A stretch of 64,000 nucleotides of DNA, from assembly GCA_023375675.1 (NCBI GenBank), contig JALQBC010000008.1, positions 868,001-932,000 of the forward strand. Direction: 5' to 3'. Positions within the stretch are counted from its first letter, which is position 1; each line of letters starts with the position of its first letter. Positions 15,974 to 51,466 of this stretch are shown here, piece by piece. The position numbers and the translations under genes were made by a program. This stretch comes from Cytospora piceicola (lineage: Eukaryota > Ascomycota > Sordariomycetes > Diaporthales > Cytosporaceae). Under the pieces are notes generated by a model. That model made no database searches and had not been told where the DNA came from. It worked only from the letters and a program-made list of their open reading frames with translations.

Positions 15974-16909
15974 CTACTTGCCTCCAACCCACCACTCAAC
16001 AACCTTTGTGAAGGCTTCCCCAGCCGCCTTCACTTCGGAGCCTTCTCTCGCGACCCAAGCTACTCTCAAGTCCGGACGGAGAAGGATCGCTGCAACTCCG
16101 TTCCACTTTGGACTTGTAGGTTTGAGCAACCCTCCAAGTGTTCTGACCTTGCCGAAACCACCGCCCAGCTGAAAAGCCTGTTCGAGGCTGTGGTGCTGTT
16201 CCACCGCGAAGCCCGAACCCTCAATGAAAGCAACTACGAACATATTATTCTTAATCGCTTCGAGTATTCCGTTGAAGCTTTCGTCCGAGACATGAGTCAA
16301 TCGAGTTCCTACGAGATCATCGACCTGTCCCAGACCTGCACACGCGACATGGTAAGGCTCAACCGGATCCGCGAACCCGCACACACGGCGAGCCCACAGT
16401 TTGTTCAACGCCGGTTCATCGAGGGCCTCCGCCATGAAGTCGGCAACGGCCTTGTCCCTTTCGGTCATTACCCACAGGCTAACAGTCTGCATTCGGACGT
16501 TGTGTTCCACCGCCCTGACCGCCGCTAATCGTTCCTCAGTGTAGCTATCAAGAACACGCTCGACGACCTCGCGGTCTGTCCCGGTCTTCCCCGTGATCAC
16601 CAACGCAAGCTTCCACGCCAGGTTGGTCGCGTCCAGCAGCCCCGTGTTCAAGCCCTGGCCTCCAGCCGGGAACAACTGGTGCGCAGCATCACCCGCGAGG
16701 AAGACACGACCCGACCTGAAGCTGTCCGCGCACCGCATCCCATCGCCCACCACGGACGTCCAGATGAGGTCGCGAAAGTTGTAGTGCGAGCCGAAGTTGC
16801 GGACCGCCCACTCCCGGATGGAGTCCAGGTCCGGGGGAAGCGGGCGCTGGCCGGCGACGAGCTTGGAGGCCGGGATCTTGCCCACCTCGATAACGTGAGG
16901 CGATAATTT
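15974..16909 (-). pseudogene. C-terminal half of split FAD monooxygenase (PHBH type)
   Basis: About 303 codons, open from VGKIPASKLVAGQ to a stop at 15,974-15,976. It carries the GD motif RVFLAGDAAHQLFPAGGQG about 60 residues in, which binds the FAD ribityl chain, then the LDATNLAWKLALV helix and a C-terminal thioredoxin-like region, as in phenol-hydroxylase/PHBH-type aromatic hydroxylases (FAD_binding_3). The N-terminal FAD fold is missing here and lies 34 kb away at 50,762-51,466 on the same strand. There are no stops or frameshifts, so the half was intact until recently. The frame meets AT-rich foreign DNA about 25 nt before GTG-GGC. A possible acceptor (CGAG) directly precedes that GTG, so the break may lie in a small intron. 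Confidence 0.9.
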
Positions 16910-17112
16910 CCGATTTTAGCAGGTTTCGGCTCCTAAGACATTGTCTTATATATGTTTCTAAAGTACATTTTCGAGTATAATACATGTTTCTAGAGTGTAT
17001 TTTCGAGTATAATATATATTTCTAGAGTGCATTTTCGAGTATAATACATATTTCTAAAGTGTATTTTCGAGTATAATATATGTTTCTAGAGTGTATCTCG
17101 AGGTTAAAACCT
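16910..17112 (+). repeat. Left terminal region with five 32-bp subterminal repeats
   Basis: An outer block (GCAGGTTTCGGCTCCTAAG near 16,919) is followed by units of the form TGTTTCTAAAGTACATTTTC-GAGTATAATACA. Units start at about 16,953, 16,985, 17,017, 17,049 and 17,081, an exact 32-bp spacing, and then fade into GAGGTTAAAACC-type copies. The same units occur inverted at 50,575-50,755. Arrays of this kind usually bind the transposase or recombinase of the element. Confidence 0.85.
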
Positions 17113-17479
17113 GTTTTTAAAGTAATTTCGATATCTACCTTAGAATAGGTTTTTAAAGTATATATATCTCGAGTATTTTCGAGGTAAAACCTTTTATTTA
17201 GCCCCTTCCTTTTAAGACTAAAACCGTTTTTATAAGGGTTAAGGGTTTTATAGCCTATATAGCCTTAACGCCTACCTCGGCGGTCGAACCTGTTTTAAGG
17301 TTCTGTTAAATAGTATACCTATATTAAAACCTTTAGCTATATAAACTTACTTCTTTACCTCTTTATCTTTAATTCTATTTTTCTTTTTTATAATTAACTT
17401 TTTTAACCTTTTAGCTGTTAGCTTATATTAATAAGTACTAACTTAAAATTAAAGGTTAAAACTATAAAGTAAATCTAAA

Positions 17480-20400
17480 AGCTAGATTAAAAATACTACT
17501 TAAAAAAAAGAAGGCTAAAGTAAAGCTAAAGGCCCCGGTTAAGCTAAAGGCCTCGGCTAAACTAAAGGCCCCGGCCGAGCCTTTTACCCCGTCTTACCGT
17601 TTAAGCAAGAAAAGGCTAAGTAGTACTACCGTTTTAAATAGCGATAATAAATAGCCCGGACTTAGTATACCTGCTAATATTATATCTAATAATATATATA
17701 AGGCTTAAAAAACCGAAGCTATTAATATTATTATAATCTAGTTTCTATAAGACTATTTTAAACTAAACCGGGACTTAAAAATACTACTTATTCTCCCGGA
17801 TTTAAAATAATTCCCGGAAGTTATCGATAAAGTAACGTTTAAAGCTATCGTTAATACCTTAAGTATATCGTAGAAGTATAGGCTTCTTATAAATTTCGGA
17901 TTTTTACCTATATATAAAATCTATACTAAAAAGGATAAAAGTAACCGCTTAGTTTTAAATTAATAAAACCCGGTATTAAACGCTTTTATTTTCCGGGAAA
18001 AGTAGCTTCGAAGTCTTTTTAAAAATAAAGTAAAGAATAACTTTAACTTTATTAACTGTAAGTACGATAAAGTTATATTATTCTATTTACTTATAGCTAT
18101 TAAAAAAAGTACGGAAATCGTCGGCGAGATCTTTAGCTTTAATAAGGTAAAATATATATATATATACTAGACTTATATCGGTAAGTAAACGACCTCTTTC
18201 TTTTATATCCGGTTAATATTAAATAATACCGACAGACCTTAATAATTTTAATACTATTTAGTATTAACAGACTTTAATAATCTTATATTATTTAATACTA
18301 ATAATTTAAATAACTTAATACTATTTAATACTAACAGACCTCGATAATCTTAATACTATTTAATACTAATAAGACTTAAATAAACTTAATACTATTTAGT
18401 ATTAACAGACCTTAATAAACTTAATACTATTTAATACTAACAGACCTCGATAATTTTAACACTATTTAATACTAACTACCTATAAATAATACTAATAACC
18501 TTATAGCGTATACGTTCTACGGCCCTTTAATTAAAGCTAAACTATATAAGTTTTAATTATACTTATATACTTTAGCAGATATATATAGATAATATATCGA
18601 ATTAGTCGAAGGGTTTTAAAACCTTAGCTTAAAACGGATTTATAAGTCGGTACTTAGTAACCTAAAATAGCCGGTTCGTCTAATTAAAAATAATAACGTC
18701 GGAATACCTTAACTTAAGAAGATTAATATAAACGTAATTATAAATATAGCAATCTTATAGTATTTTATTTATTACCTTATAAGTATTTACTTAGATATAA
18801 AAGGTATTAGGCGGTATAAACGTTATAAACCGAGTAAGGAATTTCTATAAAGCTTTTCGTATAATAACTTATTTCGTAACTTTATATTATATTTAGTATA
18901 TATCCGATAGTAGTATACCTTCGAGTTTACTACTATTAAAAAGTCTAGTAGGTTAAACTCGAATAAAAAGCCTTCCGGTAATAAGAATACTATCTAGACT
19001 TATATATATACTACTATTATATAATATAGATAATTTATAGGCGATAACGTTAAAAGTATTTTAAATAATACGGCTTTTTAGTCGGTTATAAATATATCTA
19101 TAGTATTTCGCTAACTATACGACGAAATAAAAGACGTCTTTATCAAGGCTTTAAAAGGCGTTTACTAAAACCTTTAACGTTATATAGAATTCTTAGCTAA
19201 AGCGTTCTAGTATAGCCGGCTAAACCGTAGCTATATAAAAAGCTACTAATAAAACTATAAAGCCGAAGTCTTCGACGTTATAGCTAATATTCCCTTTATA
19301 AACTATTAAATAGTATTAGCTGTAATCGAAGAGATTTATACTTAAGGTTTTTTAAAAAAGCTATACGTTATATCTATTTAAAACGAGGATATTTTTTAAA
19401 ACTTTAGAATCTTACTGCTCGAGATCTTTAATATCGAGTAGTATATCGCCGGCCTCGATATAAACGCTGCCGTACTTACTATAAATATTAAAAAAAATAA
19501 TAAAAAGGTCGACGAAAATAGTAGTAGCGCCTTTATATAGGACAAGTATTAAAATAAACTAAAATAATATTACGTAATATTAAGTCTTTTACCCTCTCGA
19601 CTTTCGATTAATATCGATTTTATAACTATATTTAATAAACTTAATATATACGATAAAAAGGCCGAAGACGATATTAAGTATTAAAACCTTTACGTAAACC
19701 GGCGAAATAGTAAAGATAGAAAGCCTTTAAACCTATACGGTATTAAACTTAAAGAGTTTTAGGTTATCGGTAAGCCTTATTTCTTAGTTAATACTTATTA
19801 ATACTAATATTAATGCTTTCTGTATCTTTTAATATTAACTTACTTTAATATAGTTTATATACTAACTAACTAATTAAATATATACTACTTATAACTTATA
19901 GTAAATAACGCGATATATAACGTTTTACTTATTAATAAGGTCGGTATAGGTAAAACCTTTATTTTTTTAATAAAACGTAAGGTAGCTATTAATAACTGCT
20001 TAGCCGTTTTAGCTAAGCTAAACCTTACTAAAAATAAAGATACCGGAAGGTATATAAAGTTATATATACCTACGATACTTATACTATCTGCTATTATTAT
20101 CGAGTAATACTTCGACGAGATTTACCGGTTCTTTCTATTAAAAACCTTTTATATCCGGTTTTACTATAGTTTAAAAAGTAATACTAGCTATAACCCCGGT
20201 TTTTAGCAGGCTATAATAATAACCGACTAACTTTATATCGAAATAAAGCTTACCGTTTAAAAGAAAAATACCTCGAAAATAAGATTTAAGCTTTAAGGTT
20301 AATACTAAATAATATTAACATCCTCTTTCTTATCGGTACTATTTAATACTAACTGCTTTAATTAACTATTAACGGTTAAATATAAAACAGAATATATATA

Positions 20401-23310
20401 AAATCTAGCTTTTCTTTTACTTTACTTCGGTATTCCGGATATTAAAAAAGACTTAAGGCTTTAGCTTTATTAAAAAGAAAAGTAATTTATTATTCGACTA
20501 TAGCTTATAAAAACACGATATATAAAACTTAGTCCGAGAGTTTAACGAAAAGAAGATAGTTTATATTTATAAAATAGTATCGAACGTATATAAAAACAAG
20601 TCTTTTTAATATAAAACGAATATAGTATAAAAACTAGACTTACCTCTCGATAAAAAGAAGGCAGACTTTAAGTTTTATACTTTAAAAGACCGAAAAGCCT
20701 ATAACGCCGACTGTATTAATAATAATATTAATAATAAGCTACCCGAGTAAAATAACTAAGTTAATAATAATAGTATAAAAGCTAAACATTAAGTTAATTT
20801 ACTTAACGAAAAGCTTAAAATCCTTATTAATATCTATAATAAACTACTTTCCGTATAGATAGATACCGGTAAGCTTTTAATATTTATAAACGAAAAGATA
20901 AAAAAGAATAAATTTATAATACTTAAGTTTTTTAACTATTATTAAATAATATAATTCCTGCTTAAGTTCTACTTTTAGTATATTATCTTCGATAAGTATT
21001 AAACAGTATAAAACCTTTATACCGGATAGTTTCGGCTTATACGTATAGTAATTTATATAGCTTATTAGCTAAACTACGAGAATAAAAAGACTAGCTTAGC
21101 CTTTTTAGTTATAGTATCTGTTACGTCTATTATTAATAAAATTATAAACTACTACGGTTTTACCTTTCTGTTTTAATAGAATATAGACTTAAATAACGTA
21201 GCTTTTTTTAAAAAAGAGTTTATAATAGATATTAAAGATAACGTTTTAAAGTTCTTACCGAAGGCTATATCTTAAGAACGGAAAGCGACGTTTACTTATA
21301 TATATACGTATTATAGTTAGTAGTAATAAACGCTATCTCTCGGCTTATAAGGTATACGGAATATCGGCGAAGATTATAACGGCCGAGATATTGTAAAAGC
21401 GATACTTTAGTATATCGGAATACGTTAAAAGATAAATACAATTACCTACCTTTTTAAATATACTAATAGTAAGCCTTAATTAGTCTACCTTTATAACGAT
21501 ATCCTTTTATATATAGTAGAAATATATAAGCTAAAATACAGAATTAATAAGTACTTTATAAACGATTATATAAATAATTATTTTTAAGACTTTATATTAA
21601 GTAATAATAACGCCGGCGTAATTAAAAATAAGATCGAACTGCTTTTAAAAAAAAGCTAGGTTAAGGTAGCTATCGATAATAGCGAAAAGGTAACGCTTTA
21701 CTTAAACGCCGGTATCCTCTATATACTAATAATTATATCGATAGATATATTTAGTTATAACGTTATATTAAGTAGGGACGTTATAAGGAATATACCGGAA
21801 GAGGTTATCGTAAACGATTTTATCGAGTTTGGAATTTAGCTAGTTCGGGTAAGAGGCGGTAAAAAAAAGAAAAAGAATACCCGACAGGCTATTAAAAAAA
21901 TAGCTAACTAAAGCGATAGCTCGATCTCTTTTAACGTAAAGTATATAGACGTTATCTTTTATAGTACTAGGGATTTAAGCCTGTTATACCTTTAACTTTT
22001 TATATATAGATTTAACCTATATAACTTTATCTTTACCGAACAGAAAGCCGTCTTTAGTTATATTATCTATAAGTCGTTAATTAACTACCGTATATTAAAG
22101 CTAATCGTTAAACAAGCTGTTAAGTAGGAAAAGACTTTAGTTATAGTTATTACTTTTTAAAAGTAACTATAAGTATAACTCCTTTTCTTATTAATATTAT
22201 TTAATACCGATAACCTTTAATTTTATTTATATTATTTAATACTAATAACCTTTTCTCCGGTTAATACTATTTAATGTTAACGGTTTTCTTTTTATTTATA
22301 TTATTTAATATTAATAACTTTTATATTATAAGCTAACTATTTAATAGCCTTTTAGTTACTATTTTAAAAAAGGCCTTTTTATCGGTTTTATCGATCTGCG
22401 TTAGTATAATCTTATTAGAGAAGGCTATATATATTTTTAAGTTTAACGATAATATATCTAATATTAATATTCTAATACTAAACTAGTAGTATAAATCCGC
22501 CGGCTTAAACCTTTACTATTATTATTACTACGGTATTTAAGTTTAGTATCTTTAAAACTTCGATATTACTATATAGTCTTTTAAGCGCCTTATCCGGGTT
22601 AACTAGTATACAAAAGTAACGTAGGTTATATTATAAGTTAACGATACCGTTTACAACTACTTTAAATATAAGGTATATATAAAAGAAGTATAAATATTCG
22701 CTGTCGAGCTTATATTCCCCGACTAGTTAAAGAAGTATATTAAGCTTAAAACTCTTATAATATATAAAGTACTACGTGTTATTTAAAGCTAGCCTTTTAA
22801 CTATTACGTTTAAAATATTTATTACTTTAAGGTTATCGAAGACTTTAACTCGGTAGTTACTTATAATATTACCGAGTTTTATAAGTAGCTTAGGCTATTA
22901 TTATTAAGTATTTTAAAAGAAAAACCCTTCGAGTAAAACTTTTTAAAAAAGCTCGACGATAAGCTAAATACTTTTTTTAAAACGTAACTTACTAATAATA
23001 ACCTTAGCTATAATTTTAGTTAAAAAGTTATAACCGAGCTTTTAGCTATAACGGTCAATAAAGCTAACGAAACTATAAGCTAGGTAAATAGTATACGGAA
23101 GAAGATAGCCGATACGACTTTCGATAATATAAAAAAGAGGAAGGTATCGACGTTAAAGTAAATCTTCGACGGTAATAACCTTACGGCTAAGCGGCGGAAG
23201 TAAAAAGAGGCTAAAAAGGCTAAAAAGGCTAAAAAAGCCGAAAAGGCTAAAAAGGCCGATAAGTTCGAAGAGGCCGATAAGTTCGAAAAAGCTTAAAAGT
23301 TTAGATATTT
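17480..23310 (+). pseudogene. SNF2-family helicase, RIP-degraded
   Basis: A long degraded gene read with TAA/TAG at places expected for CAA, CAG or TGG. Ahead is a Lys/Pro-rich N-terminus (17,500-17,620). The helicase N-lobe has Walker A at 19,940-19,957 (LINKVGIGKTF, where D-to-N fits a TGAT to TAAT change), then a strand and helix matching the SNF2 motif Ia region (YIPTILILSAIIIE, YFDEIYRFF at about 20,080-20,140). The C-lobe near 22,440-22,720 reads SAGLNLYYYYYYGI and then SFKRLIRVN-stop-YTKVT, which are motifs V and VI with the Arg finger. The tail (23,110-23,300) is very Lys/Ala/Glu-rich. Several introns interrupt it, some filled with short repeats. SNF2 helicases remodel chromatin or DNA; this one probably belonged to the element. 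It cannot encode a full protein now. Confidence 0.75.
18225..18475. repeat. ~40-bp tandem repeat with TTAATACTATTTAATACTAA core
   Basis: About seven units that alternate ACAGACCTTAATAAACTTAA with TACTATTTAATACTAA. The core is an imperfect palindrome (TTAATACT / AGTATTAA). The array sits after a GTAAGT at about 18,180 inside the helicase relic, so it is probably an expanded intron. The same core recurs singly near 20,290-20,340, 22,190-22,320 and elsewhere. Confidence 0.75.
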
Positions 23311-28259: not shown

Positions 28260-29530
28260 GCTAGTTTAACCTTTTAACCCGAACCTTTTAAGGCGTCGTT
28301 AAGACTACTATAGTAACTACTACGATACTTTACCTATATATAATACTAAAATCTTTAAAAAGGCTTATTAGTAAAAAGGTATCGTTTAGCTTATATATAA
28401 AGCTAAGTAACGGCTAAACCGACGTATTATAAAGCTTATAAGCTTATAGAGTATAGTAAACCGTTACGCTAATACTTATATACTTTTAACTTTAAACTAA
28501 GCTACCGTACTACTTAAAGTTTTAATATAAAAGTTTAAGCCGGCGGCATATATTAAAATCTCGTTATTATACGTTATTTATAAAGAAGGTAACTATATTA
28601 CGTTCTTATTTAAGGCGTAAGCTTAGTTTTTAACTTAGCCTTATAACGGTATTTAGTTTAATAACTTTATTAAGTATAAGCCGTTTATTAGATATAACAG
28701 GAACTATATATATTATAACTTACTATATATTAACCCGAACTATATTATATAGGAGTTATACGATATTAACTAATTTAAAATAAAGTGCTATAATTATACT
28801 TTTATCTTTTGCCGGAACGGTTTTCTTATTCCGGTAAAGTATTTAAAATATAGCTTATTTTATTTTTTTTAAGTAAATCTTATACCCGTTTATATATTAT
28901 AAGCCTTAACTAATATAATAGTACGTATTCTTTATAATACTTAAACGTGTTTCGTTTTAGATTTAAGTATTTAAAAACGTTTATAGGCTATTAAAAAATC
29001 TTGCTTTTAAACGCTTACGGTAGTATACTTTTCTTACGTTCGAAGCTATATTATCTTTTTAGTTTTATAAAGGCTTTATTGTTATATTAAACCTACGTTA
29101 CGTTTACCGGGTAAAGGTATATATAAAAGTCGACCGGCTTTAGCTTATTTACTTTTTTTATTTTATAATTAGGTTTTTTATATAAGTCGTAGTTTATTAA
29201 AGGTATTTACTCTTCTGTTACGCCGAATAGTTAAAGGCCGGCCGGCTATTAAAAGTTTAACGTTCGGCGGCTAGCTAGTAAACGTACTTTAAGGCGTAGC
29301 TTAAGCCGTTTTTAAATAAACCGATAATAAGGAAAGTCCGATAAGCTTTATAGCCGGGGTTTTAATAGCGTTATGTAAAAGCGTAACGTTTAAAGAAATA
29401 AAGGCTATAGGTTTAAGGTTTCGAATTATAACGTTTCGAGGATTTAATTAATTAAGTGTTATCGTATCGTTTAAAGTATTTTATTTAAGTATTAATAAAA
29501 CCCTTTTTATTAAATAGTATCTTTTAAGTT
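28260..29530 (+). pseudogene. Degraded long frame, unidentified
   Basis: About 420 codons readable through TAA/TAG stops. It contains YYDTLPIYNTKIFKKAYQ near the start, NYITFLFKAQAQFLTQPYNG-type sequence in the middle (Q where TAA or TAG stands) and GVLIALCKSVTFKEIKAIGL near the end. Hydrophobic and charged residues are spaced as in a real protein. No family recognised. It is one of the longest single frames of the element and so a reasonable place to look for its mobility enzyme. Confidence 0.4.
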
Positions 29531-29814
29531 AATACGTTACTACTATCTGCCTGCTATCTATACCGTTACCTATACCGTTACCTATATTATTATCTACTAT
29601 TTACGTTTACGCTTATACTTACTACTTACGTTATTACCGTCGCTGTTAGTAAATCGCTTATTATTACCGTTACCTAATTATTATTTAATACTTTATCTAC
29701 TATCTACTATCTACTACCTACTACCTACTGCTTACGCTATCGCTATCGCCGTTACTATCGCCGTTACCGTCGTTATCGGTTAATTACCTGCTATTACCGT
29801 TACCTAATACTGTT

Positions 29815-29840
29815 ATCTACTACTACTATTACTACTACTG

Positions 29841-29877
<37 letters not shown>

Positions 29878-29882
29878 CGAGT
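29815..29882. repeat. TAC microsatellite
   Basis: An almost pure TAC repeat of about 20 units in a stretch of CTAC/CTAT-rich simple DNA (29,530-29,890). It is followed by a C-run (CACCCCCC) near 29,937, which is unusual in this AT-rich block. Confidence 0.9.
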
Positions 29883-30214
29883 AGTAATTACTATCGACCT
29901 AAAAGTATATTATACTATTTAGGTATATATCTTAATCACCCCCCTTATAGTCCTTCCGATTTTAGTTTACTTTATAGTATACTATAGTAAGCTTTATTAT
30001 ATAAATTATAATCCCGATAAATTTATTTTATATAGATAATTAAAAAATCGATTTACTGTTATTAAACTTATTTTTATAAACTATTATAGAAAGTGTTTAG
30101 TTACTTTAAAAATAAAGTAACCGACGTTATTATAATCCGTTTTATTTTAATTAAATAAAATCTATTTAATAATAAAGGCAGCTAATATACTACTATAGTT
30201 TTTTAACGTTATAA

Positions 30215-31340
30215 CCTTATTCGTCCTTATTATTAAAGGCCACGCTTTTATATAAGGTATTAAAACCGAAACGTTTTATTTAGTCGGCTATTCTGTTTAT
30301 AGTATTATATATTTAGTCGATGTTATACGCGATAATATTAAACTACTACTAAGCTGTTTTTTAAACGGTATTAAACGTTACTTTAGCTTTATCTTTAATT
30401 TAAGCCGTCTGTTTATTAACCTCTATAATAGCCTCGAAGAATATACGTATAACCTTTTTTATATTTTAGTCTTTTCTATTACCTTTTAAGATTAAGACGA
30501 CTTTAAAGTACTTTTCCTCGATTACTTTAGCGAAGTCGACTAAAAGGTTTTAAGCCTGGCCCGGGTTTTTTATAATAAAGCTTATAAAAGTAGCAGGTAC
30601 TTTATTCTGTTTTTAAAGCTTTTAAAGCCGTATAAAGCCTTATACAATCTTATTTATAAGGTTAAAGATAGTACGCCTCGAGGTAAGGCTATAGCTAAAG
30701 ACCGACGATATAGATTATATAGAAATATCTTTTATATTCGATACTAACGGGGATAATACAGGCTTATTTACCTATTTCTAATACGAATTCTAGTATACGA
30801 ATAAAAAGCCCGGCGGCGTAATAGTTAGTTTATTAAAAGTAAAGATACCGGTATTATAAAGGGTAAAGATATCGTTTTTTTTTTATAGTTAAGTTTCGGT
30901 AATAGTATTTAGCTAACGTTTAGTAATCTCGAAAATAATACTTTAAAAGACTTATACCTTAGTTACGTTATTATCGAGCTATAGGCCGTACTCCTTCTTT
31001 TTATATATACGTATAGGCTTTATATTTATCTCCGAAGCTTTACTTACGTTTTTATATACCGTTTTAAAAAAGCTATACGGTATCTTTGCGTTATATATAA
31101 TAGTATATAGTAGCAGCTCTTTTTTAGTTTACTTATTTTAGCTAGTTCCGGGCTTCGGGAGTATACGCTTTTTATAGTATAAATATAAGTCGGAAAGGTT
31201 TTAATAGTTAAAGTAGGTTTTTATCGAGGGTAGTATAATATATTTTTAGCTAGAAAATATATCGGGCCGAGAACAGGTATATTTAAAACAGCGGTATATA
31301 GACGTTACTAGCTAAAACCTAAGTTAGTATATATAAGCGT
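30215..31340 (-). pseudogene. Degraded frame on the minus strand, unidentified
   Basis: Read on the minus strand, about 370 codons pass through TAA/TAG stops only. Parts are AKIPYSFFKTVYKNVSKASE, VPATFISFIIKNPGQAQNLL and LLVDFAKVIEEKYFKVVLIL, followed by a Gln/Lys-rich helical end. It is the only long frame I find opposing the rest of the element, so it may mark a divergent gene or a nested insertion. No family recognised. Confidence 0.4.
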
Positions 31341-32249
31341 TATAAATAATAGGCGGGATAGCTTTTTATATTATTTATTTACTCGGTTTTCGGCCTATAA
31401 GCGTTTAGTCTTTAGCTAATACTAAGTAGTAATATATATATATAAGGTAATATATATATATAGGGTAGCGGTAATAGTAGTAGTATCGGTATCGGCTCGG
31501 GTTTATCTTTATACTACAGCTACGGTAATAGTAATATTAGTATCGATAGTTTAATAGGAAAGTAGCTTTACGTTTTTAAGTTAAGATTTCGTATTTATAT
31601 AAACGATTATTACCTCCGATAGATAATCTTAGCTTTATATCCGATAGGTCGGAGGGGCTATATACTTATTTCGGATATATACTTAGATAATATATCTTAT
31701 ACCGCTATAATCTGTTTAAATTAAACTTTAAAAGATATTAGTAGTAAACCTAGTCTTTTTTACTAAATATCGCTTTTTTAGCTATTACTTTAATATCTAA
31801 TAAATATACTTACGACCTTCTTTATTTCTTTTTTTTTATAACGCTATTTAGGTAGGTTACCTTACTTTAATAGTATAAAGACAGAAGCTTCTTATAATTC
31901 GTACCTCTGTTCTTTAGTTGTTTAGCTTTTAAAGGGAAGCTTTCGTTTTAATTAGTATTAAAAAGTATAAACGAAATTAGTATATAAACTATTAGCACCT
32001 TTTAGTGTTAACTACTACTAGCTACTAATTAGTAATTCTAATTTGTTTTTAAGGTTTGTTATTATAGTCTTTAAAGTTATTAATTATACTTATTAAATTT
32101 TAAATAAACGTTATATTAATACGGTTAAAGACTGTATTAAACGTAATATAGTCTTTTTTTATATTTATTATTAGATATAAACGGTATAGTTACTTAAAAT
32201 TAAACTTTAATTCTTATAGTCGTTTACTATTACCGATATATAGCAGAAG

Positions 32250-35899: not shown

Positions 35900-37800
35900 T
35901 AGTAACTTAAGCGAGGCTATTTAACTTATTAAACACCTCGTTCTTAAACGTAACCTTTTATAAAACATACCTTTTTTTAAGTAGCGTATATACTTAAATA
36001 GATATTTTACGTAATAATAGCTTATCTTTTTTTAGCTTAGCTAATAATACTTTCCGAGTATATAATTATAGTAGTAATAAAACCTTAAGCGGTATATAAT
36101 AATAGCTAGTTAAAGCTTATAGTTTATCTTTAAGCTTTAAAGGTTTATTTTTAGACTTTTTATATAAGATATAAGCTCGTTTTTAAATAAAAGACTATCT
36201 GTATATAGTATAGGCTTAATTTGTTAAAGTAAGTTATAGTAAGTTTATACTATTTTTTAAGTAGTATTACTTAAGTATATTATATAGGTATAGCTTATCT
36301 CTTTCTATTTTAGCTATAGCTTAAATAGTAATACTTTCCGAATATGTAATTATAGTAGTAATAAAAACTTAAGCAGGTTAACGGCGTAGTTTTAATAATA
36401 ATCTAAGTTTTAGGCTTTTAAGCGTATAATAGCTTCTTAGAAACTCTGTTTATAGAATATTATAGTTATTTACTAAACTAATTTTTTAAAAGATTCCGAG
36501 ACGGCGTTTTAACGCGCGGCTTTTTAGCTATAAGAGTTACTAGCGGGTTTTTTATTTTATACGGTTTTTATTACGTAGTTTTTTAAATAGCTTAATAGAC
36601 TAAAAGTTTCGGTTATAAAGGATTTATAGTAGGTTTTAACCTTATAAGCGTAGCTATTCCGGCGACTTACGTTAATAAGAAGCGTTAGTTATACTAGTAT
36701 AGGCTTTTCTTTAGATAAGTAATAAGTAATACCTACCTTTAAAGAACGTTAAATAGCTATACCCGAAGTATTATAGCCGCCTTAGTATTAAAAGAGTTAA
36801 AGTTAATCGAATCTATAGCTATACTTAAAGATATTTAAGGGTATAAGGGCTTATACGCTAAAAGTAGAATCTGTATCGTATAAGCCTTTACTATAGCGAA
36901 AGCTTATATTAAGGATATTTTCTTTAGCTATAGGTTTAGTTAATAAGGTATATGTAAACGGAATATATAACGTTTAAAAGGGCGTTAAAGGTAATACGAT
37001 TTTATAATAAGGTATATTAATAAAACCGCCCGGGAGGACTATACTATATCGATAGCTATTATTAAACTTAAATATAAAACCTTAGTAGTAATACAGATAT
37101 AGACAGGGATAGCTAATAAGCCTATAAGTAGTAATTCTGTTTCTTACGACGGCTTTTTACTTTAAATTTAAAATAAGGTTCTCGGCCGGAGGAGTTTAAC
37201 GTGTTTACTAAATCTGTTATAGCTTACTAGTTTTTTAAAAACCTTTTATAGGATTATAGGTTTTACGCTTTATTTAGTTAGATAATATTATAACGTAAAG
37301 TAGTTTCGAAGAACCTATAATAACAGATCGTTTTTTAATTTAAGTTTATATAGAAATTAAGTGTAGACTTAAGAGTAAGTACTTAAGGAACTTATAATAC
37401 GGATCGTTTTTTAATTTAAGCTAGAGATTAAGTATAAACTTAAGAGTAAGTACTTAAAGAACCTGCGATACAGATCGTTCTTTAATTTAAGCTAGAGATT
37501 AAAATATATACTTACTGTATTAATTAACCTTATAAACTTTTCCCGCTTATACGCTTATACTAGTATATCGTGCCTCTTACTTTTAAAGCAGAGACTTATA
37601 AACTATTATTTAAATATATAGTTTTATTATATTCTAAATCTATAATTGTTTTAAGGATATTCGGAGGTATAAGGACTTATACGTTAAGAGTAATATCTAT
37701 TAAACTATATAAGTGCTACTTACTACGAAAGTATTTACTAAGGATATTTTTATTAATTATAGGTTTAGTATAAGTTTATAATAATATAGCTGCTTATAAG
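35900..37800. repeat. Several diverged direct duplications
   Basis: Three sets can be seen. CTTTCCGAGTATATAATTAT at about 36,050 recurs as CTTTCCGAATATGTAATTAT at about 36,330, with similar flanks. A 130-bp segment near 36,825-36,960 (GGGTATAAGGGCTTATACGC ... AAGGATATTTTCTTTAGCTA) recurs near 37,650-37,770. A unit of about 70 bp with GATCGTTTTTTAATTTAAG occurs three times at 37,320-37,510. The last copy region contains a 67-codon open frame (37,570-37,773, +) that I regard as chance. Confidence 0.65.
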
Positions 37801-37884
37801 TGTAAAACTAAGGCGGCGATAAAGGCCTGGGCAGCTTAGTCTTTATATTAGAGGTTACTATAGACTTCGTTACCGTAAGCTGTT

Positions 37885-38060
37885 GCCGATAGATCTGTTC
37901 CCCTACTGGATCTGTTACCTCGTTGGATCTGTTACCCTGCTGGATCTGTTACCCTGCTGGATCTGTCCCTTTGCTAGATCTGTTACCTAGATCTGTCCTT
38001 TAGATCTGTTACCTAGATCTGTTACCTAGATCTGTTACCTGGATCTGTTACCGTGGGCTG
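37885..38060. repeat. GGATCTGTTACC minisatellite, little RIP
   Basis: About eleven units of GGATCTGTTACC(CTGCT) and shorter AGATCTGTTACCT forms. Unlike the DNA around it, it keeps many TG dinucleotides, so it was mutated less or arose after the main RIP wave. Confidence 0.85.
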
Positions 38061-41000
38061 TGCTGTCATTCTGCTACCCTATTAGATTTATTACCGTAGG
38101 CTTTATTGTAAGATAATGCTTTTACTGTATTTAGATCGAGATCGCCTTACCTGGGCCGGCTTATAAAAAGACAGATTAAAAGACGTTTAGAAATATATAC
38201 TTATACCGTGATTTATCTTTATTATTAATTAGCTGCTACTTTTAAAGAGTATTAGTAAATAGTAATTTTTATAATACCTTGTTAAGTAGTAAGGCTATAG
38301 TTTAAGTTATTAATAATAAAAGAATAAAGATTATATAAGACTTTCCGGGTTCTTCGGATTTATCGATATTAATTTACGGTATAATAGCTTATCTGTATTT
38401 TCTATCTAAAATAACTTAAATAACTTTAAGTTTTATAGGTTAGTACCTATAGAATCGTGTTTATAAAAGGCTAAAACCGTTAAAAAGCTTTGAAAACTCG
38501 TCGACGTTATAGTGTTTTTAATAGGCTTTATTTAGAGAAAGTGAAATTTATTTTTAACGTACTCTTGTTTTTCGGGACTTTCTTTTTAAGTAAATAGGTC
38601 TTTTAAGTCGATTACTATTATTCTTAGTGCTATTACGGCGAATAGTTAGTAAGCTAGAATTAATTAGTATAAGAGCCGTACTTTATCTATTTAACTACTC
38701 GACACTCGGCTATTAAACCTTACTCTTTCTTAGCTACTCGGCTACTCGGCTACTCGGTAACTCGACTAATTAGTTAATTAATATCCTTTCGGCTTAGACT
38801 TACCGATATTACGATTTTATTAATTAAAATCTTTAAACGTTATTTACCTGTTAAATTAACCGATTTACGCCTTAAGCGGACTTTCGACTTTCGACCTCTT
38901 TTCTGACCTTTTTTCCGATCGCCTTATAGATATAGTATTTCTACTATAACCTCAGATAATAGTACGGTTAAGCGTATTAATATATATAAAGAGCGACGTT
39001 CTATTTCGAGCTTAAATAAGGCTTTAAATTTAAAGGACGTTAAGGTTAAGTCTTTTAAGAAGGAGATAGCTATTGCGTTAAAGGCGGTAAAAGAAGAGCT
39101 TAAGGTTAAGGTTAAAACCTTAGTAGGGCGTAGAAGATATATCTTTTTATATAGAGTTAGTATTATTTAATACTAAAATAATATTATCTAAATAATTCTT
39201 ACTACTATAATTTACCCTGATTAAACATTAATCGTAATGTATATAATATTTATTTATTACTTATATATTTACTAGAAAAGGAGCGTAACTAGTACTTGAG
39301 TTAGTATCTATAGGTACTAACTTTAAACCTGATTAATTAAACGTTTTAGTACTTTTTAGTGCTAACTAGCCTTATAACTTTTTTAGGGCTTATGTTCGAT
39401 GCTTTATAGATCGGGCTGCTGTTTAGTTTCGTTACTTAAAGACTACTTAGGTATCTGGGTATTGCTAACTCATTTCTTAATTTAAACACCCTACTTAATG
39501 TTACACATCCTGTTATATTTATAAAACAAATGCTACTTTAATATATTGTATAGTCTTATTATTAAACTAGTATTACTAACTCCTTTCTTTAAATCTAAAT
39601 ACCTTACTAAACATTATACTTTATTATCTTTATAAATAATGTGTTAACTAGTATTATTAACTCTATTCTTTAATCTAAACACCTTATTAAATATTATACT
39701 CTGTTATATTTATAATTAAATACCTGTTAATATATCGATATAGACTAGACTAGTACTTACCGTCGCTTATTACTTAGCCCGTTTAGCTATTGTTTAGTCT
39801 TTTTTTTATAAGAGAGTTTGCCGGCGTAAGGTAGCCGGCTATTTATCTAATTAAGCTATATCCGAGCCGACGGAAAGTCGGGGTATATCAGGTTTATATA
39901 TATCTTTAAAGGTTTTTTTCTGTTTAGTAGAAGGTAGTAAGATAGGCCGGAGAAACGATAGCTTTACGTCGATATTACGTATAATAAGCTTAGCGAAACT
40001 TTACTACCTTAGATATAGGCTTTAAATATTCTTACTTTAAGTATAAATTTTTATATCTTAATATTTTATCCCGGCTACGTTTAAGACCTCGTATAATATT
40101 ATCTTATATACGTTCGGATTCTGTTATAGGCTATTATCGGTTATAGTATCGGCTATAACGTTTATAATTACTAAGTAAGCGATTAGCGGTTTTCGTTACT
40201 ATATCTTTTACTCGTTATAAACCTAAGGGATATATCGATTAGTAAGTTTACTGCGGAGCTTTACAGCTATTATTTTAAACTAGTTCGGCTTATCGGGTAG
40301 CTGTTACGGCTACTGCAGCTGTTATGTCTGCTATATCTGCTATATCTGCTATATCTGCTGTATCTGCTATATCTGCTGTGTTTACTATATCTGCTATATC
40401 TGCTATAGCGAGAGTTACTTAACAGGTTATTATAAGGTTTCTTAACCTAACTATTTTAAAGCTAGCTGTTAAGCTATTATATAACGTCGGAAGAGTTTAC
40501 CTTAAGTAATAGTTAGTAATATACCTTTTAGGACTAAGATAATAAAAACAGACTTAAATACGTTATTCGATAAGATTTACCTTAGTTAAAGCAGGATCTT
40601 ATTTATTTATTTACTTTCGGATTTTATATTTAGTTATATTTATAAGGGGGAGTAGCTTTAGCTCGAGTAAGTTGTTTTACAATAGCTTAAATTCTTATAG
40701 CGTAAAGAGGATTATAAGCTCTTTTTATTCTTTTTAGTCTTTAATCGGGATAGCCCGCTTTTTAGCTTAGTTTTTAAGGTTTTTCTATAGATTGCTATTT
40801 AATACGGATCTACGATCCGTTTAAACAGTCTGCTATAAGAAGATACGTCGCGATAAGGTTAGTTATATACTGTTTACCGAGTTTATTATATCTGTAAAAG
40901 GTAAAGTATATAATGTTTCGGGTTTAAGATTTAGTAGTTTCGAAGGCGATATATATAGCTTAAGTAGGTAGTAACGATTAAAAGGTTTAGAACTCGGGCT

Positions 41001-41150
41001 TAAAGCTGTTATAACGATTTTCTTTAGCTTAAGGCTATTATTTAACGCCTTTCTATTAATAGCTTTTAGCTTTTTATCGACTACTTAAAGCTGTCTTAGT
41101 ATTATCTCTCTTGCTTTTATTAGCTTTATTATTAGCTAAGTTACTTTATA
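38060..41150. other. AT-rich degraded DNA, no frame recognised
   Basis: About 3 kb with weak or broken frames only. Short arrays occur near 38,725-38,765 (CTACTCGG) and 40,315-40,400 (CTGCTATAT). Around 39,360-39,720 TG and CA are somewhat more frequent than elsewhere in the element. An acidic/basic coding-like stretch near 38,990-39,130 (Lys/Glu/Val-rich, +) may be a gene fragment. Confidence 0.4.
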
Positions 41151-41395
41151 GCCTTCCGATATTTTAAGATATAAAAGAGAGCGGTTTAAGACTTTTAAAA
41201 ACTTACTACAGCCTTCCGATATTCTAAGGTATAAAAGAGACCGGTTTAAGGTTTTAAAGTTATTTCTATAGGCTACTAATATTATTAAAGTATAAAGGAG
41301 AGCGGTTTAAGACTTTTAAAAGCTTACTATAGCCCTCCGATACTTTAAGATATAAAAGAGACCGGTCTAGGATTTCGGTATTATTTCTAAAGGTT
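41145..41395. repeat. ~60-bp minisatellite, four units
   Basis: Units of the form AGCCTTCCGATATTTTAAGA-TATAAAAGAGAGCGGTTTAA, alternating between AGAGCGG and AGACCGG versions, so the higher-order period is about 120 bp. Four units are readable. Confidence 0.8.
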
Positions 41396-41529
41396 ACCGA
41401 TATACTCTGAGATCGTTTAAAGCTATATTAACAGCTTTAGGTAGCCGCTAGGTAGGTAACTTACTTAGTAGGTATATAGATTTAAAGGCTTACCTCTTTA
41501 ATACTAACTTTCTTAGAATTTTCAGATCT

Positions 41530-42215
41530 CTATAAACCTCTTCTACTATACCTTATCCTATAACTATCATCCTATAGACCTTATCTGCTAGACTATATCT
41601 TTACAGACCTTATCTGCTAGACCTTATCTGCTAGACCTTATCTGCTAGACCTTAATTCCTAAACCTTATCTACTAGACTATATCTTTATAGACCTTATTT
41701 GCCAGACCTTAATTCCTAGACCTTATCTGCTAGACTATATCTCTACAGACCTCATCTGCTAGACCACATCTCTACAGACCTCATCTGCTAGACCTCATCT
41801 GCTAGACCTTAATTCCTAGACCTCATCTGCTAGACCACATCTTTACAGACCTCATCTGCCAGACCTCAATTCCTAGACCTTATCTGCCAGACCACATCTC
41901 TACAGACCTCATCTGCCAGACCACATCTCTACAGACCTTATCTGCCAGACCTCATCTGCTAGACCTCAATTCCCAGACCTTATCTGCCAGACTACATCTC
42001 TACAGACCTCATCTGCTAAACCTTAATTCCCAGACCTTATCTGCCAGACCATATCTCTATAAACCTTATCTACCAGACCATATCTCTACAGACCTCATCT
42101 ACTAGACCTTATCTGCTAGACCTTAATTCCCAGACCTTATCTACTAGACTATATCTCTATAAACCTTATCTGCCAGACCTTATCTCCTAGACCTTATCCC
42201 TTAGACCTTAATTCC
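41530..42215. repeat. AGACC(T/A)-rich minisatellite of ~690 bp, little RIP
   Basis: A long array built from short subunits: AGACCTTATCTGCT, AGACCACATCTCTAC and AGACCTTAATTCCT in varying order, about 45-50 subunits. CA and TG are frequent (CAGACCTCATCTGC), in contrast with the DNA on both sides. The mix of T and C at the same positions looks like partial RIP of a once uniform array. Confidence 0.9.
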
Positions 42216-42599
42216 TAGCTACGTTTATAAAACAGCAGAAACCGGATACTATAGGTAAGGTAAGCTCGATACTATATACTATTTCCTATCTTATTATTAA
42301 TATAGATAATTCGAAAAATAAAATATCGCTTTCGAAGGCTACTTTTACCGTTACCTCGAAAGCTACGAAAGGCTAATAAACTATTAACGATCTTTATATT
42401 TATAATAAAGCAATATTAATAGTAAGTTTAAACTCTTTAAATATCTTAGTCTTTACTTTTATACTAACTAAATCTATAAAAAGTTAACATATAAAAGTAA
42501 GCCGTTACTATTACTGTTATTATTACTACTATTATTACCGCTATTGTTAAGTAGTCTTTTTATATCCGAAAGGACGATAAGCTAGCTAACAGCCCTTTA

Positions 42600-46560: not shown

Positions 46561-46669
46561 ATAACAAAAATTAAAATATCGAGTAAGGATATATATTTAG
46601 TCGTTCTTTATTATTTATAATATTATATATTATATCTCTTTTACTTTTAAGTATTAAAGTTTAGTACTA

Positions 46670-47130: not shown

Positions 47131-47164
47131 TACCTTATATATTTTAACTAACTTTAAGCGATTA

Positions 47165-47915: not shown

Positions 47916-48290
47916 TTAGTACTTAAGGTATAAAAAGGGCTACTAAAAGTATGTAATTACGTAATACGGCGTAGATAAGCTCTTTTACTTAAAGGGCTCG
48001 GAAGCTATACTATACTTATCTCGAGCTATTATACTTATTTCGAGCTATCGTACTTATTTCTAATAAAATAAAGTACGTATTTATATACTTAATATACCGG
48101 GTATATTAACGCTTATGCCGGCTTTACTGCCTTTAAGGCCGGAGCTTTCTTTAAAAGCTTAATTGCTCTGTATAGCGTATAATTAAATTACTTTTTATTA
48201 TTAGCGCGTTTTCGCTTTCTGTTATTTTAATATAAGTATATACCTAAGTACTTTTAAACGTGTTTTTAAAGTTAAGCTTAAAAAATATCC

Positions 48291-48375
48291 TTATTACTAC
48301 TATTACTACTATTACTACTATTATAACTACTACTACTACTAACAATAATAATAATAATAATAATAATAAAAATAA

Positions 48376-48406
<31 letters not shown>

Positions 48407-48415
48407 AATAGTTCG
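48291..48415. repeat. ATT/ACT trinucleotide microsatellite
   Basis: Runs of TACTAC / ATTACT followed by AATAATAAT. The minus strand is open for 65 codons as a poly-Ile/Ser frame (48,278-48,475); this is a by-product of the repeat and is not annotated as a gene. Confidence 0.9.
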
Positions 48416-48933
48416 TATTACGCTTTCTGTCTGTAGCTCGATTAAAGTAATTATAAAACTAACTACTATATACAAATAAGATGCCCTTTACCTTCCTTAT
48501 TAAGTTACTTATAGCCGCCTAGGCTATAAAGGCCGGTATATACGCTTTTTAGCTCGATTATAACCTTTATACTAATAACTTACTAAGTAAGAAGAAAAGC
48601 CGCGCCGGCGGTATTAAAAGTATGTATATATTAACTTACTTTATTTATTTTAGTTACTATTATCCGAAAGTAATTATTAACTTTTATAATTAAAGAGCGC
48701 AGCTTCGAAGCCCGTTTATAAGAGTAAGATCGGCGGCTTAAGCCTTTTCTCGTATAAGTTACGCCTTTTATTATTTATTGTTTATATAAATTACCTATTG
48801 TATTCTATACTTACTCGAGCATTATTACTACCCTTTATATTCCCTACTTATCTCGAGTATTATTACTGCCTTTTATATTCTTACTTATCTTAAGTATTAT
48901 CGCTTATATTACTAACTAGTATATAGCTGCCTA

Positions 48934-49600
48934 TATGCGCGGCCGTTTAGCCGAGCCCTCTTCTTCCCCCTCCCCCGACGACGATAATAACGACGATAAC
49001 CCCGGCTCGCCTATAGCCGCCGCCGCTTACCGTTAGTCCGCCTGTTTTTAAAAAGCTAAAAGTAAGGCTAAAGGTAAAGCTAAAAAAAACCCTTTTAAGC
49101 CTAAGGTACTTAAAAGCAGCTTATACGCCGACCTATATATTAGTTACGTAAAGTCGGCTTTAGCTAGTCGGAGTACAGGATAGTATTTCGACGTTTTTAA
49201 AGGTAGTCTTTTAAGTATAAGAACACGTTATATTTATTATATTTAGAACGGCTATACCTATACTGCTATTACCGGCTTAACGAAACCGGTTTATTACGTT
49301 TTTATAGATACTTTAGCCGGCGGAGTTAAGGCTTAATAGGTTAAGGTATTTCGTAGTTTTATTTATAAAGTCTTCGAAGATTTTACGTTAAGGTCTGCCT
49401 TTAGTAGGGTAAACGCTTCGGTAAATAAGGGTTATACTTAGCTACGTATAGCTAAATACGCCTTTATAAACTCGCTTTTAGACTTAGTTTAATAAAACGC
49501 TTTCGTATAAGGTTTTTAGTTTAGTTTAAGTATTTAGTTTTATACCGGCGTATACGCCTTATAAGGCTTTTTATTTATTTATTTACGGTTTATACCGGCG
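48934..49600 (+). pseudogene. Degraded frame near the right end, unidentified
   Basis: It starts with ATG at 48,934 in an unusually GC-rich patch (MRGRLAEPSSSPSPDDDNND), an acidic, Pro/Ser-rich leader followed by a Lys/Ala-rich stretch. Then comes a possible domain (YADLYISYVKSALASRSTG, FDVFKGSLLSIRTRYIYYI, TLRSAFSRVNASVNKGYT). Stops are only TAA or TAG. It points toward the right terminus. A disordered leader before a helical domain would suit a DNA-binding protein, but no family is recognised. Confidence 0.45.
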
Positions 49601-49904
49601 TATACGTTTTTCGGGGTAAAATTATAAATTAAATATTACGCTAACGTATATATCTTTTTTAAGTATTTAATATCTTTTACTCCTTTTCTATATATATAAT
49701 ATCTGGTATTAAAATAGTTAGTATTAAACGGTATTAACTTAAAGTTAGTTAAAATATTCGAAATTACTTAAGTTTTTAAGTAGCTACTTTAGTACTTTAG
49801 ACGGCTATAAAATAAGATATAGGCGATATAAGAATTATAGCTAAAAGGTTAGTTATAAAAGGCTTAATAGGCGTAAAAGTAAGGTTATTATATAAGTAGT
49901 TATA

Positions 49905-50335
49905 TATTCTGTAGCGGACCGACTGTAAAAGATATTGTAGATATACGTTACATATTCTATAGCGGACCGACTATAAAAAGTATCGTAGCTATCGTAAATC
50001 TTCTAAGGCGGACCGACCGTAAGAGGCATTATAGTTATACGTTATATATTCTGTAGCGGACCGACCGTAAAGGTATCGTAGCTATACATCACGTGTTTCG
50101 TAGCGGACCGACTGTAAAAGGCATCGTAGCTATTATAGATCTTTCGTAGCGGACCGACTGTAAGAGGTATTATAGCTATACGTTACGTGTTCTGTAACAG
50201 ACCGACCGTAAAAGGCATTATAGCCTCCCGTATCGCCTTTCCCACTCGGTATAGCCTAAGCCGACCGTAAGGGACCGGCCGTAAGAGGTATCGTATATAG
50301 ATCTTCCGGGGCAGACCGACCGTAAGATATATTAG
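49905..50335. repeat. ~47-bp minisatellite with GCGGACCGAC core, about nine units
   Basis: Units spaced 46-48 bp (cores at 49,914, 49,962, 50,008, 50,056, 50,103, 50,149 and on), of the form GCGGACCGACTGTAAAAGG-CATCGTAGCTATACGTTA. It lies just inside the right terminal array and has no counterpart at the left end. Confidence 0.85.
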
Positions 50336-50384
50336 AAACACTACCTATATAGCTACAGTTAAATGAACAGAGGACTATTAGCTA

Positions 50385-50552
50385 GGGCTCGAGGGCGATA
50401 TAGAGACAGATGGCTACGATTAGACTCGAAGGTCGAAGGTCGAGGGCAATATAGAGACAGATAGCTACGATTAGATTCGAAGGTCGAGGGTCGAGGGCGA
50501 TAGAGATAGCTACGATTAGATTCGAAAGTCGAAGGTCGAAGGTCGAAGTAAA
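50385..50552. repeat. ~60-bp tandem repeat, three units
   Basis: Units contain GGGCGATATAGAGACAGAT and GGCTACGATTAGACTCGAAG, separated by small GGTCGAA triplications. It sits between the 47-bp array and the right terminal region. Confidence 0.85.
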
Positions 50553-50574
50553 CCTTACAATATATGTATTAGCT

Positions 50575-50755
50575 TTAAATGTATTCTAAAAACATGTATT
50601 ATACTCGGGATATACTTTAAAAATATATATTATACTCGAAAATGTACTTTAGAAACTGTTTTAACCTCGAAAATGCACTCTAAAAACATGTATCAGACTC
50701 GAGATGTACTTTAGAAACAGTGTCTTAGGAGTTAAAACCTGCCGAAAATGGAGAA
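50575..50755 (-). repeat. Right terminal region, inverted copy of the left
   Basis: Read on the minus strand, the outer block CCATTTTCGGCAGGTTTTAA is followed by CTCCTAAGACACTG and then units such as TGTTTCTAAAGTACATCTCG and TGTTTTTAGAGTGCATTTTC. This is the same order and unit as at 16,910-17,112. Differences between the two ends are mostly C/T and G/A. Confidence 0.85.
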
Positions 50756-50761
50756 AATTTA

Positions 50762-51466
50762 CTCTCGCTTAACAGGGATGAAACGACGTCCTGTCTTGCC
50801 TTCGCCCGTGGCAAAGAGCATCGCCCGCCCGCCTTCGCCCCCGTTGTCGAAGAGGTTCTTCATGACCGGCGCGTCCTCGTCGGCGTGGCCGTCGGCGAGC
50901 CAGCCGTACTGCTCCGCGGTCGTGCCGTCGAAGGCGATACCAAGTGCTTGGCGCACTTGACTGCGCGTGCCGTCACAGCCCACGAGCCATGGGGAGCGGA
51001 TAGTCTCGGTGTCAGCCTCGCCGGCCTGGAAGGTCGCCGAGACTTCCTCACCGCTCTGCGTCAACCCCACGAGCCGCCGGCCCCAAGCAAACGAGATACC
51101 GACCTCCTCACACCGCCGGAGGAGGATCTCCTCCGTGCGCACCTGCGTGACGAGCATGTTGAACGAGTACTTGGTGCCGAGGACGTCGTAGTTTAGGTCG
51201 AGCAACGTCTTCCCACCGCCGAAGTGTGCTGTCTTGGTGGGCATGCCCGCAGCCACGAGTTCCTGGGCGATGCCCAGGATGCGAGCCACTTCGATGGTGC
51301 TGGCGCTGGCACTAAGGCCCCTGGACCCAATCCTGGGCTGGATCCGGGATGGGCGCTGGTCTGCGATGAGGATGTTGCCGGCGGGAACGCCGGCTTGCTG
51401 TAGGGCTAGGGCTGTGGTAAGCCCGACGGGGCCGGCCCCAATGATAAGGACTGTAGGGGATGTCAT
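50762..51466 (-). pseudogene. N-terminal half of split FAD monooxygenase (PHBH type)
   Basis: 235 codons from ATG at 51,466. The Rossmann motif VLIIGAGPVGLTTALALQQA (residues 6-25) binds the ADP part of FAD, and WLVGCDGTRSQVRQALGI (160-177) is the DG motif of aromatic hydroxylases. The frame runs through GGRAMLFATGEGKTGRRFIP and hits a stop (50,759-50,761) at the edge of the AT-rich element. The missing GD motif and C-terminal domain are at 15,974-16,909, same strand, order and family, so together they made one protein of about 540 residues. No internal stop or frameshift is seen. The 5' part with its promoter could still make a short, probably inactive protein. GTTAAG directly after the FIP codons could be an intron donor. 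Confidence 0.92.

What the first reader, a model, noticed from the sequence alone, without database searches (positions are those of the whole stretch)
15974..51466. A 33.8-kb element splits one FAD monooxygenase gene
The C-terminal half (GD motif) at 15,974-16,909 and the N-terminal half (GxGxxG and DG motifs) at 50,762-51,466 are on the same strand, in the right order, and of the same subfamily. All the DNA between is AT-rich and foreign in composition. Seen directly: the two half-genes and the composition change. Known: the domain order of PHBH-type hydroxylases. Inferred: one insertion event.
Basis: partly seen in the sequence, partly recalled or inferred. Interest (0 to 1): 0.9.

Follow-up and report, generated by a model that had tools for sequence, protein, structure and literature searches.

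The report
Giant fungal jumping element splits gene
A 33.9-kb mobile DNA element, one of about eighteen copies in this fungal genome, has jumped cleanly into an enzyme gene and was then damaged by the fungus's own mutation defence; the enzyme that moved it could not be identified.

Summary
The two half-genes are one 532-codon FAD-dependent hydroxylase, cut inside one codon: they match residues 1-229 and 231-532 of an intact 532-aa Cytospora relative, and no close intact paralogue turned up in this genome. The insert is 16,885-50,777 (33,893 bp), with imperfect inverted ends full of 31-32-bp repeats and a single A outside each end.

Its composition is not foreign: CpA/TpG depletion shows RIP, the fungal repeat defence. 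It belongs to a family: 18 places carry the exact 33-bp left end; of 16 paired ends, 13 are left-right copies with A on both outer sides, 11 of them 33.2-36.1 kb. Three internal blocks, found in 18-19 copies each, keep their order in the two copies checked. Nine copies differ mainly by transitions. So one unit moved.

The enzyme is unknown. A six-frame Pfam scan found no transposase, reverse transcriptase or Starship captain, though stop-riddled reverse transcriptases and DDE_1 transposases elsewhere in the genome are detected. A SNF2-like helicase is suggested by motifs only. I file it as a captain-less giant TIR element: a new variant of a known kind.

The parts
50779..51466 (-). N-terminal part of the split FAD monooxygenase (229 codons + 1 nt)
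   Evidence: PF01494 3-182; matches P0003 residues 1-229, 70.0%
15974..16883 (-). C-terminal part of the split FAD monooxygenase (1 nt + 302 codons + stop)
   Evidence: PF01494 245-348, sub-threshold PF21274; matches P0003 residues 231-532, 69.5%
16885..50777 (.). The inserted element, 33,893 bp, RIP-mutated
   Evidence: ends located; RIP indices
16884..16884 (.). outer A at left end (possible 1-bp target duplication)
50778..50778 (.). outer A at right end (possible 1-bp target duplication)
16885..17124 (+). left terminal inverted repeat, CCTCGATAACG..., with 5.5 copies of a 32-bp subterminal repeat (16948-17123)
50540..50777 (-). right terminal inverted repeat, reading inward CCCTGTTAAGCG..., with about 4.6 copies of a 31-bp repeat (50577-50719)
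18701..20250 (+). probable RIP-broken coding remnant, present in 18 copies; helicase motif I-Ia-like pattern at about 19,943 (inferred SNF2-like N lobe; strand and frame not secure)
22100..23300 (+). probable RIP-broken coding remnant, helicase motif V-VI-like pattern at about 22,502 (inferred SNF2-like C lobe; strand and frame not secure)
28942..31689 (+). possible RIP-broken coding remnant (916 residues read through), in 19 copies (some in pieces) plus more divergent matches in the genome
43254..45599 (+). RIP-broken coding remnant conserved with a second-subfamily copy (62% over 793 aa; most gaps multiples of three); plus frame favoured, not secure

Best explanation
A giant, terminal-inverted-repeat-bounded mobile element of 33.9 kb inserted as one unit into a single-exon FAD-dependent aromatic-ring hydroxylase gene, splitting one codon and leaving at most one duplicated base (A). 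The element is one of about eighteen copies in this genome, which were nearly identical when they spread; a second, divergent subfamily is also present. RIP converted most CpA/TpG in the copies that were read and made them AT-rich. Mechanism, inferred: an element-encoded recombinase or transposase recognises the terminal repeats with their arrays of subterminal repeats and inserts at a pyrimidine-A position. Shown: the split gene, the ends, the copy number, RIP, collinearity in the copies compared. Inferred: the enzyme, the order insertion-then-RIP, a helicase among its genes.
For: Halves tile one 532-aa relative with one residue between them. 18 places in the genome match the 33-bp left end with 0 mismatches (two positions A or G) and 8 more with 1-2; reversed-pattern control 0. 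16 neighbouring end pairs were found; 13 are left/right pairs of the main family and all 13 carry A on both outer sides in element orientation; 11 of the 13 are 33.2-36.1 kb, the others 40.7 and 44.4 kb. Left outer base A in 16 of 18 flanks (two of the 18 are the abutting C26 ends), right outer base A in 17 of 17; the base before the left A is C or T in 17 of 18. Internal blocks: 5' block in 18 copies, central block in 19, some in pieces, 38.1-40.1 kb block in 18, at similar distances from the left end in C22 and C11, the two compared with the window. Nine copies over a 5.7-kb stretch have 28 columns with a transversion although the eight others are only 83.8-84.7% identical to the window copy. 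In the 33 bins from 17,001 to 50,000 (CA+TG)/(AC+GT) is 0.04-0.62 and TA/AT 1.55-3.42; outside the first is 0.93-1.41.
Against: No uninterrupted allele of this species was seen; the empty site is inferred from relatives' proteins. Reads were not available, so assembly error was not excluded directly. Two of 16 end pairs do not carry the same outer base: C23:213346-248447, and the 29.7-kb C26 copy that abuts a neighbour. L067, fetched as the presumed partner of the C22:506697 end, showed no clear end (best 0.68). No transposase was identified, so movement by its own enzyme is not shown.
Confidence: 0.93

Rival explanations
1. About its class: it is a Starship whose tyrosine-recombinase captain is too damaged or too divergent to detect.
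For: Size, fungal host, asymmetric terminal inverted repeats and a preferred target base fit; in passages seen, inverted repeats are reported in 18 of 20 and direct repeats of 2-12 bp in 19 of 20 Aspergillus fumigatus Starships (PMC12153272) and asymmetric inverted repeats as a frequent feature (PMC12257634). The one DUF3435 locus detected here is less RIP-damaged (CA+TG 23-25 per kb) than the window element (11.5 per kb at L021), so a worse-hit captain could be missed.
Against: DUF3435 (PF11917) is found in this genome only as two adjacent pieces on C51, with 11 stops in all, in none of the copies. Six-frame Pfam scan finds none. Outer repeat is at most 1 bp. About 18 copies seems many for a Starship (recalled).
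Confidence: 0.25
2. About its class: a DDE-type (cut-and-paste) TIR transposon of a superfamily hidden by RIP or not yet described, which carries large extra genes.
For: Long terminal inverted repeats with subterminal repeat arrays are typical binding sites of DDE transposases (established knowledge). Many copies with identical left ends.
Against: I recall no DDE superfamily with a 1-bp target duplication; no DDE family in Pfam matched in six frames, while stop-riddled DDE_1 copies elsewhere in the genome are found.
Confidence: 0.45
3. An integrated virus or Polinton-like element.
For: Size and inverted repeats.
Against: No polymerase, integrase or capsid family detected in the Pfam scans, with the RIP caveat; Polintons make about 6-bp duplications (recalled).
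Confidence: 0.05
4. The AT-rich block grew stepwise from nested small transposons after a first small insertion.
For: RIP-rich blocks in fungi often are nests (recalled); the 40.7-kb copy on C1 holds a reverse-transcriptase match (C1:1839039).
Against: The window element has the same ends, and internal blocks in the same order and similar spacing as the copies compared; none of the 58 scored reverse-transcriptase matches lies in it.
Confidence: 0.03
5. Two separate genes, or each half from a different paralogue.
For: None found.
Against: Halves tile one relative exactly; the next best-scoring match to that relative in the genome is 32% identical over about 200 residues.
Confidence: 0.01

Closest known systems
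Starship elements (fungi)
   Same: Giant, terminal inverted repeats, short outer repeat, site preference, can be hit by RIP (PMC12257634, passages)
   Different: No detectable DUF3435 captain; outer repeat at most 1 bp; about 18 copies
'Icarus' of Pyrenophora tritici-repentis (PMC9594970, passages)
   Different: 294 kb, described in two isolates, has DDE genes and cargo; ours is 33.9 kb, multicopy, no DDE family detected
CACTA (En/Spm) DNA transposons
   Same: Terminal inverted repeats followed by arrays of subterminal repeats (recalled); enlarged 16-20 kb families are reported in Chondrus (PMC6431247, passages)
   Different: Ends are CCTCG/CCCTG, not CACTA; 1-bp rather than 2-4 bp duplication (recalled); no CACTA transposase family matched
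Cytospora FAD-binding monooxygenases P0002, P0003, P0004, P0006
   Same: Uninterrupted relatives, 64-71% identical to the halves
   Different: Intact, 529-535 aa

Membership tests
FAD-dependent aromatic-ring hydroxylase (split gene) | FAD_binding_3 (PF01494) over both halves in order | tested here: met
   positions 3-182 and 245-348 of PF01494
FAD-dependent aromatic-ring hydroxylase (split gene) | C-terminal Rng_hyd_C (PF21274) | tested here: inconclusive
   22.3 bits against cut-off 27.5; precomputed for most of the intact relatives listed
Starship | DUF3435 tyrosine-recombinase captain as first gene | tested here: not met
   only C51 hits in the genome; six-frame Pfam scan negative; limit: RIP and divergence may hide it
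Starship | flanking direct repeats of 2-12 bp | tested here: not met
   at most 1 bp
Starship | terminal inverted repeats | tested here: met
Class II TIR DNA transposon | terminal inverted repeats shared among copies | tested here: met
   inverted ends; 33-bp left end, 18 exact
Class II TIR DNA transposon | target-site duplication of superfamily length | tested here: inconclusive
   14 of 16 pairs carry the same single outer base (13 A, 1 G); 2 differ
Class II TIR DNA transposon | DDE transposase | tested here: inconclusive
   no family hit in six frames; detection limited by RIP, but 10 of 11 DDE_1 matches elsewhere contain stops
LTR or other retroelement | reverse transcriptase | tested here: not met
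   58 RVT_1 matches scored in the genome (a lower bound), none in the window element
Polinton/Maverick | protein-primed DNA polymerase B and retroviral-type integrase | tested here: not met
   no hit in six-frame Pfam scan, RIP caveat
Helitron | 5' TC, 3' CTRR, insertion between A and T, no long inverted repeats (recalled) | tested here: not met
   ends CCTCG.../...CAGGG with inverted repeats; base after the right A is T in 8 of 17

The most novel reading that the evidence does not exclude
A so far undescribed superfamily of giant (33-45 kb) fungal TIR elements, without captain or DDE transposase of any known family, that inserts at pyrimidine-A with a one-base duplication, carries a SNF2-like helicase and other large proteins, and reached about 18 copies in one burst before RIP hit it.
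Probability: 0.35. Interest if true: 0.8.

Novelty: new variant of a known kind. Interest (0 to 1): 0.58.

Why it matters
Giant fungal mobile elements are now mostly discussed as Starships, which are found by their captain gene. A multicopy 33-kb element with precise ends and no detectable captain would be missed by captain-based searches, and suggests that large units other than captain-bearing ones can multiply in fungal genomes. RIP makes such elements look like ordinary AT-rich filler. The exact ends given here make them searchable.

Tried and rejected
Foreign DNA by composition: rejected, since RIP indices explain it. Starship captain: PF11917 over the whole genome, only C51 hits. SNF2 helicase: by eye first; five host SNF2 proteins scored against the element with RIP-tolerant codon scores stayed within the shuffle null (best 52.5 against a null maximum of 60.7 in 240); PF00176 and PF00271 whole-genome searches list no element copy; a PDB sequence search gave one unrelated weak match (E 0.084). 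Two motif patterns, written after seeing the sequence, match once each in one frame and in none of 300 x 6 codon shuffles, so it remains a suggestion. Six further RAD5-like host loci were fetched and read but not scored. Pfam scans: the best chance-like hits were VraX (E 0.008; 0.043) and others at E 0.02-0.5, all below their curated cut-offs. Open-frame tests by stop counts and by stops shared in nine copies were uninformative, since RIP hits the same sites in all of them. The plus frame at 43.3-45.6 kb has evidence against it too: its stop density is 0.10 near 44.5 kb, the opposite strand aligns almost as well (750 against 791 bits) and transversions over the whole stretch differ little by phase (77, 109, 105). 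Database relatives of the 18.7-23.3 kb and 43.3-45.6 kb remnants: none. Structure predictions of two remnants were useless (mean pLDDT 30), so no fold search was made. A longer target motif right of the A is at most borderline. Eight paper searches that ran (two of them returned no paper) listed no title or abstract start that describes this family; the library lacks most subscription journals. PMC10799480 was seen in passages and not used. Rfam at gathering scores: nothing. No tRNA in the window. One search aligned a wrong frame and was replaced.
Full report
What was checked. The window lies at G000:C79:868001-932000 of an unnamed 43.6-Mb genome. The C half gives four named Cytospora relatives of 529-535 aa, 66-71% identical, so the host is probably Cytospora or a close relative (inference). 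Searched separately, the N half (51,466-50,779) matches residues 1-229 and the C half (16,883-15,974) residues 231-532 of the 532-aa relative P0003; neither has an internal stop, and 688 + 1 + 910 nt is exactly 532 codons and a stop. Apart from the halves, the best-scoring match to that relative in this genome is 32% identical over about 200 residues; shorter stretches reach 48%. The halves are therefore one gene, cut within one codon, with nothing lost.

The ends. Inverted repeats close the block (for example arms of 74 nt at 82% and 47 nt at 89%; aligned): left CCTCGATAACG..., right, read inward, CCCTGTTAAGCG.... Both ends carry arrays of a 31-32-bp repeat. The element is 16,885-50,777, 33,893 bp, with an A just outside each end. 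Because the relative has exactly one codon at the split, only one of the two A positions can belong to the gene: either the A was duplicated, or the element brought one.

A family. The 33-bp left end occurs 18 times with no mismatch and 8 times with one or two; the reversed control occurs 0 times. From 38 end regions (L001-L020 and L053-L070) I found 16 neighbouring end pairs. Thirteen are left-right pairs of the main family; all 13 have A on both outer sides in element orientation, and 11 of them are 33.2-36.1 kb long. A 40.7-kb copy on C1 holds a reverse-transcriptase match; a 44.4-kb copy on C57 is unexplained. Of the other three pairs, one subfamily-2 copy has G on both sides, one has different bases, and one, on C26, has two left-type ends, is 29.7 kb and abuts a full copy. 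One more likely pair, C16:132349 with the end in L070, fell just under the match threshold, and L067 showed no clear end. Over all flanks read, the left outer base is A in 16 of 18 and the right in 17 of 17. Beyond that base the flanks share nothing obvious by eye; one right flank looks like part of a tRNA gene (L068, by eye).

One unit. A 5' block is found in 18 copies, a central block in 19, some in pieces, and a block at 38.1-40.1 kb in 18. In C22 the offsets from the left end are about 1.69, 11.92 and 21.19 kb, in C11 1.70, 11.93 and 21.15 kb, in the window 1.82, 12.06 and 21.22 kb, so order and spacing are kept in the copies that I compared. Nine copies over a 5.7-kb stretch show 28 columns with a transversion, while the eight others are 83.8-84.7% identical to the window copy: the copies were nearly identical before transition mutations.

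RIP. (CA+TG)/(AC+GT) is 0.04-0.62 in the 33 bins from 17,001 to 50,000 and 0.93-1.41 outside; TA/AT is 1.55-3.42 inside. The central-block loci L021-L050 have GC 0.25-0.36 and 7-28 CA+TG per kb, against roughly 115-160 per kb in most bins outside the element. The low GC fits the host defence and needs no foreign origin.

What it encodes. A six-frame Pfam scan of 17.2-50.7 kb with stops masked or read through gave no credible family (extra pieces; the best E-value was 0.008 for an unrelated small family). The same kind of profile does find damaged genes here: 56 of 58 scored RVT_1 matches and 10 of 11 DDE_1 matches contain stops, and DUF3435 is found once, in two pieces. How RIP-damaged those RVT_1 and DDE_1 loci are by dinucleotides was not measured, and the DUF3435 locus is less depleted than the window element. 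So the absence of a reverse transcriptase, a DDE_1 transposase and an ordinary captain is meaningful, but a divergent or worse-hit enzyme could still be hidden. The 43.3-46.4 kb stretch aligns with the opposite strand of a subfamily-2 copy (L082) at 72% DNA identity; 11 of 15 and 4 of 6 gaps are multiples of three, and within it 62% of 793 residues agree in the plus frame, so it probably once coded for a protein. Strand and frame are not secure. No database relative was found for it or for the 18.7-23.3 kb remnant. In the latter, two helicase-like patterns occur in one frame and in the expected order; they were written after reading the sequence and occurred in none of 300 x 6 codon shuffles. 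Host SNF2 proteins did not score above the null, so the helicase is a suggestion only.

What it is. The split gene, the family, the ends and RIP are shown. The class is not. Starship membership fails on the captain and on the outer repeat as far as tested; passages say that all Starships have a captain at the 5' end (PMC12153272; PMC12257634). A giant TIR element that appears to lack a captain is described in passages of PMC9594970 ('Icarus'). I therefore call this a captain-less giant TIR element, new variant of a known kind, and give 0.35 to a new superfamily. The confidences given for Starship and for a DDE transposon concern the class and do not compete with the best explanation.

Neighbourhood. 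Of 10 flanking open frames scanned, four gave a match: an MFS transporter piece, a family-2 glycosyltransferase piece, a sub-threshold 2EXR-like piece and a flavin oxidoreductase piece. None suggests that the split gene belongs to a toxin cluster, but only these 10 frames were scanned.

Noticed in passing
window 37,000-42,300: RIP is weaker and strand-asymmetric here: CA is depleted but more TG is kept (6 CA against 28 TG in the bin at 37 kb), while the bin at 41 kb keeps 35 CA. The 38.1-40.1 kb part is present in 18 copies, so it is not a private nested insertion.
   Followed up: partly
G000:C26:318390-381586: Two elements abut with only TA between them; the junction-side end of the first (29.7 kb) is of left type, with right-type sequence further in.
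   Followed up: partly
L068 (G000:C22:506697): Right end of a copy lies against a sequence that looks like the T arm and 3' part of a tRNA gene (by eye).
   Followed up: no
G000:C15:99478-141089, G000:C23:213346-248447: Second subfamily: ends CCTCGAYAACG / CCCTTGTYAACC; in C15 the end types sit on the opposite sides relative to the conserved 43-kb stretch.
   Followed up: partly
G000:C90:1159961-1221601: A subfamily-2-like left end and a main-type right end lie 61.6 kb apart with a reverse-transcriptase match at 1,179,451 between them; whether they belong together was not tested.
   Followed up: no
G000:C51:181911-182709: A stop-riddled DUF3435 gene, the only captain-like match in the genome.
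   Followed up: no
window 60,572-61,216 minus: Another flavin oxidoreductase piece (PF01593 above cut-off, PF01494 below it) about 9 kb from the split gene.
   Followed up: no
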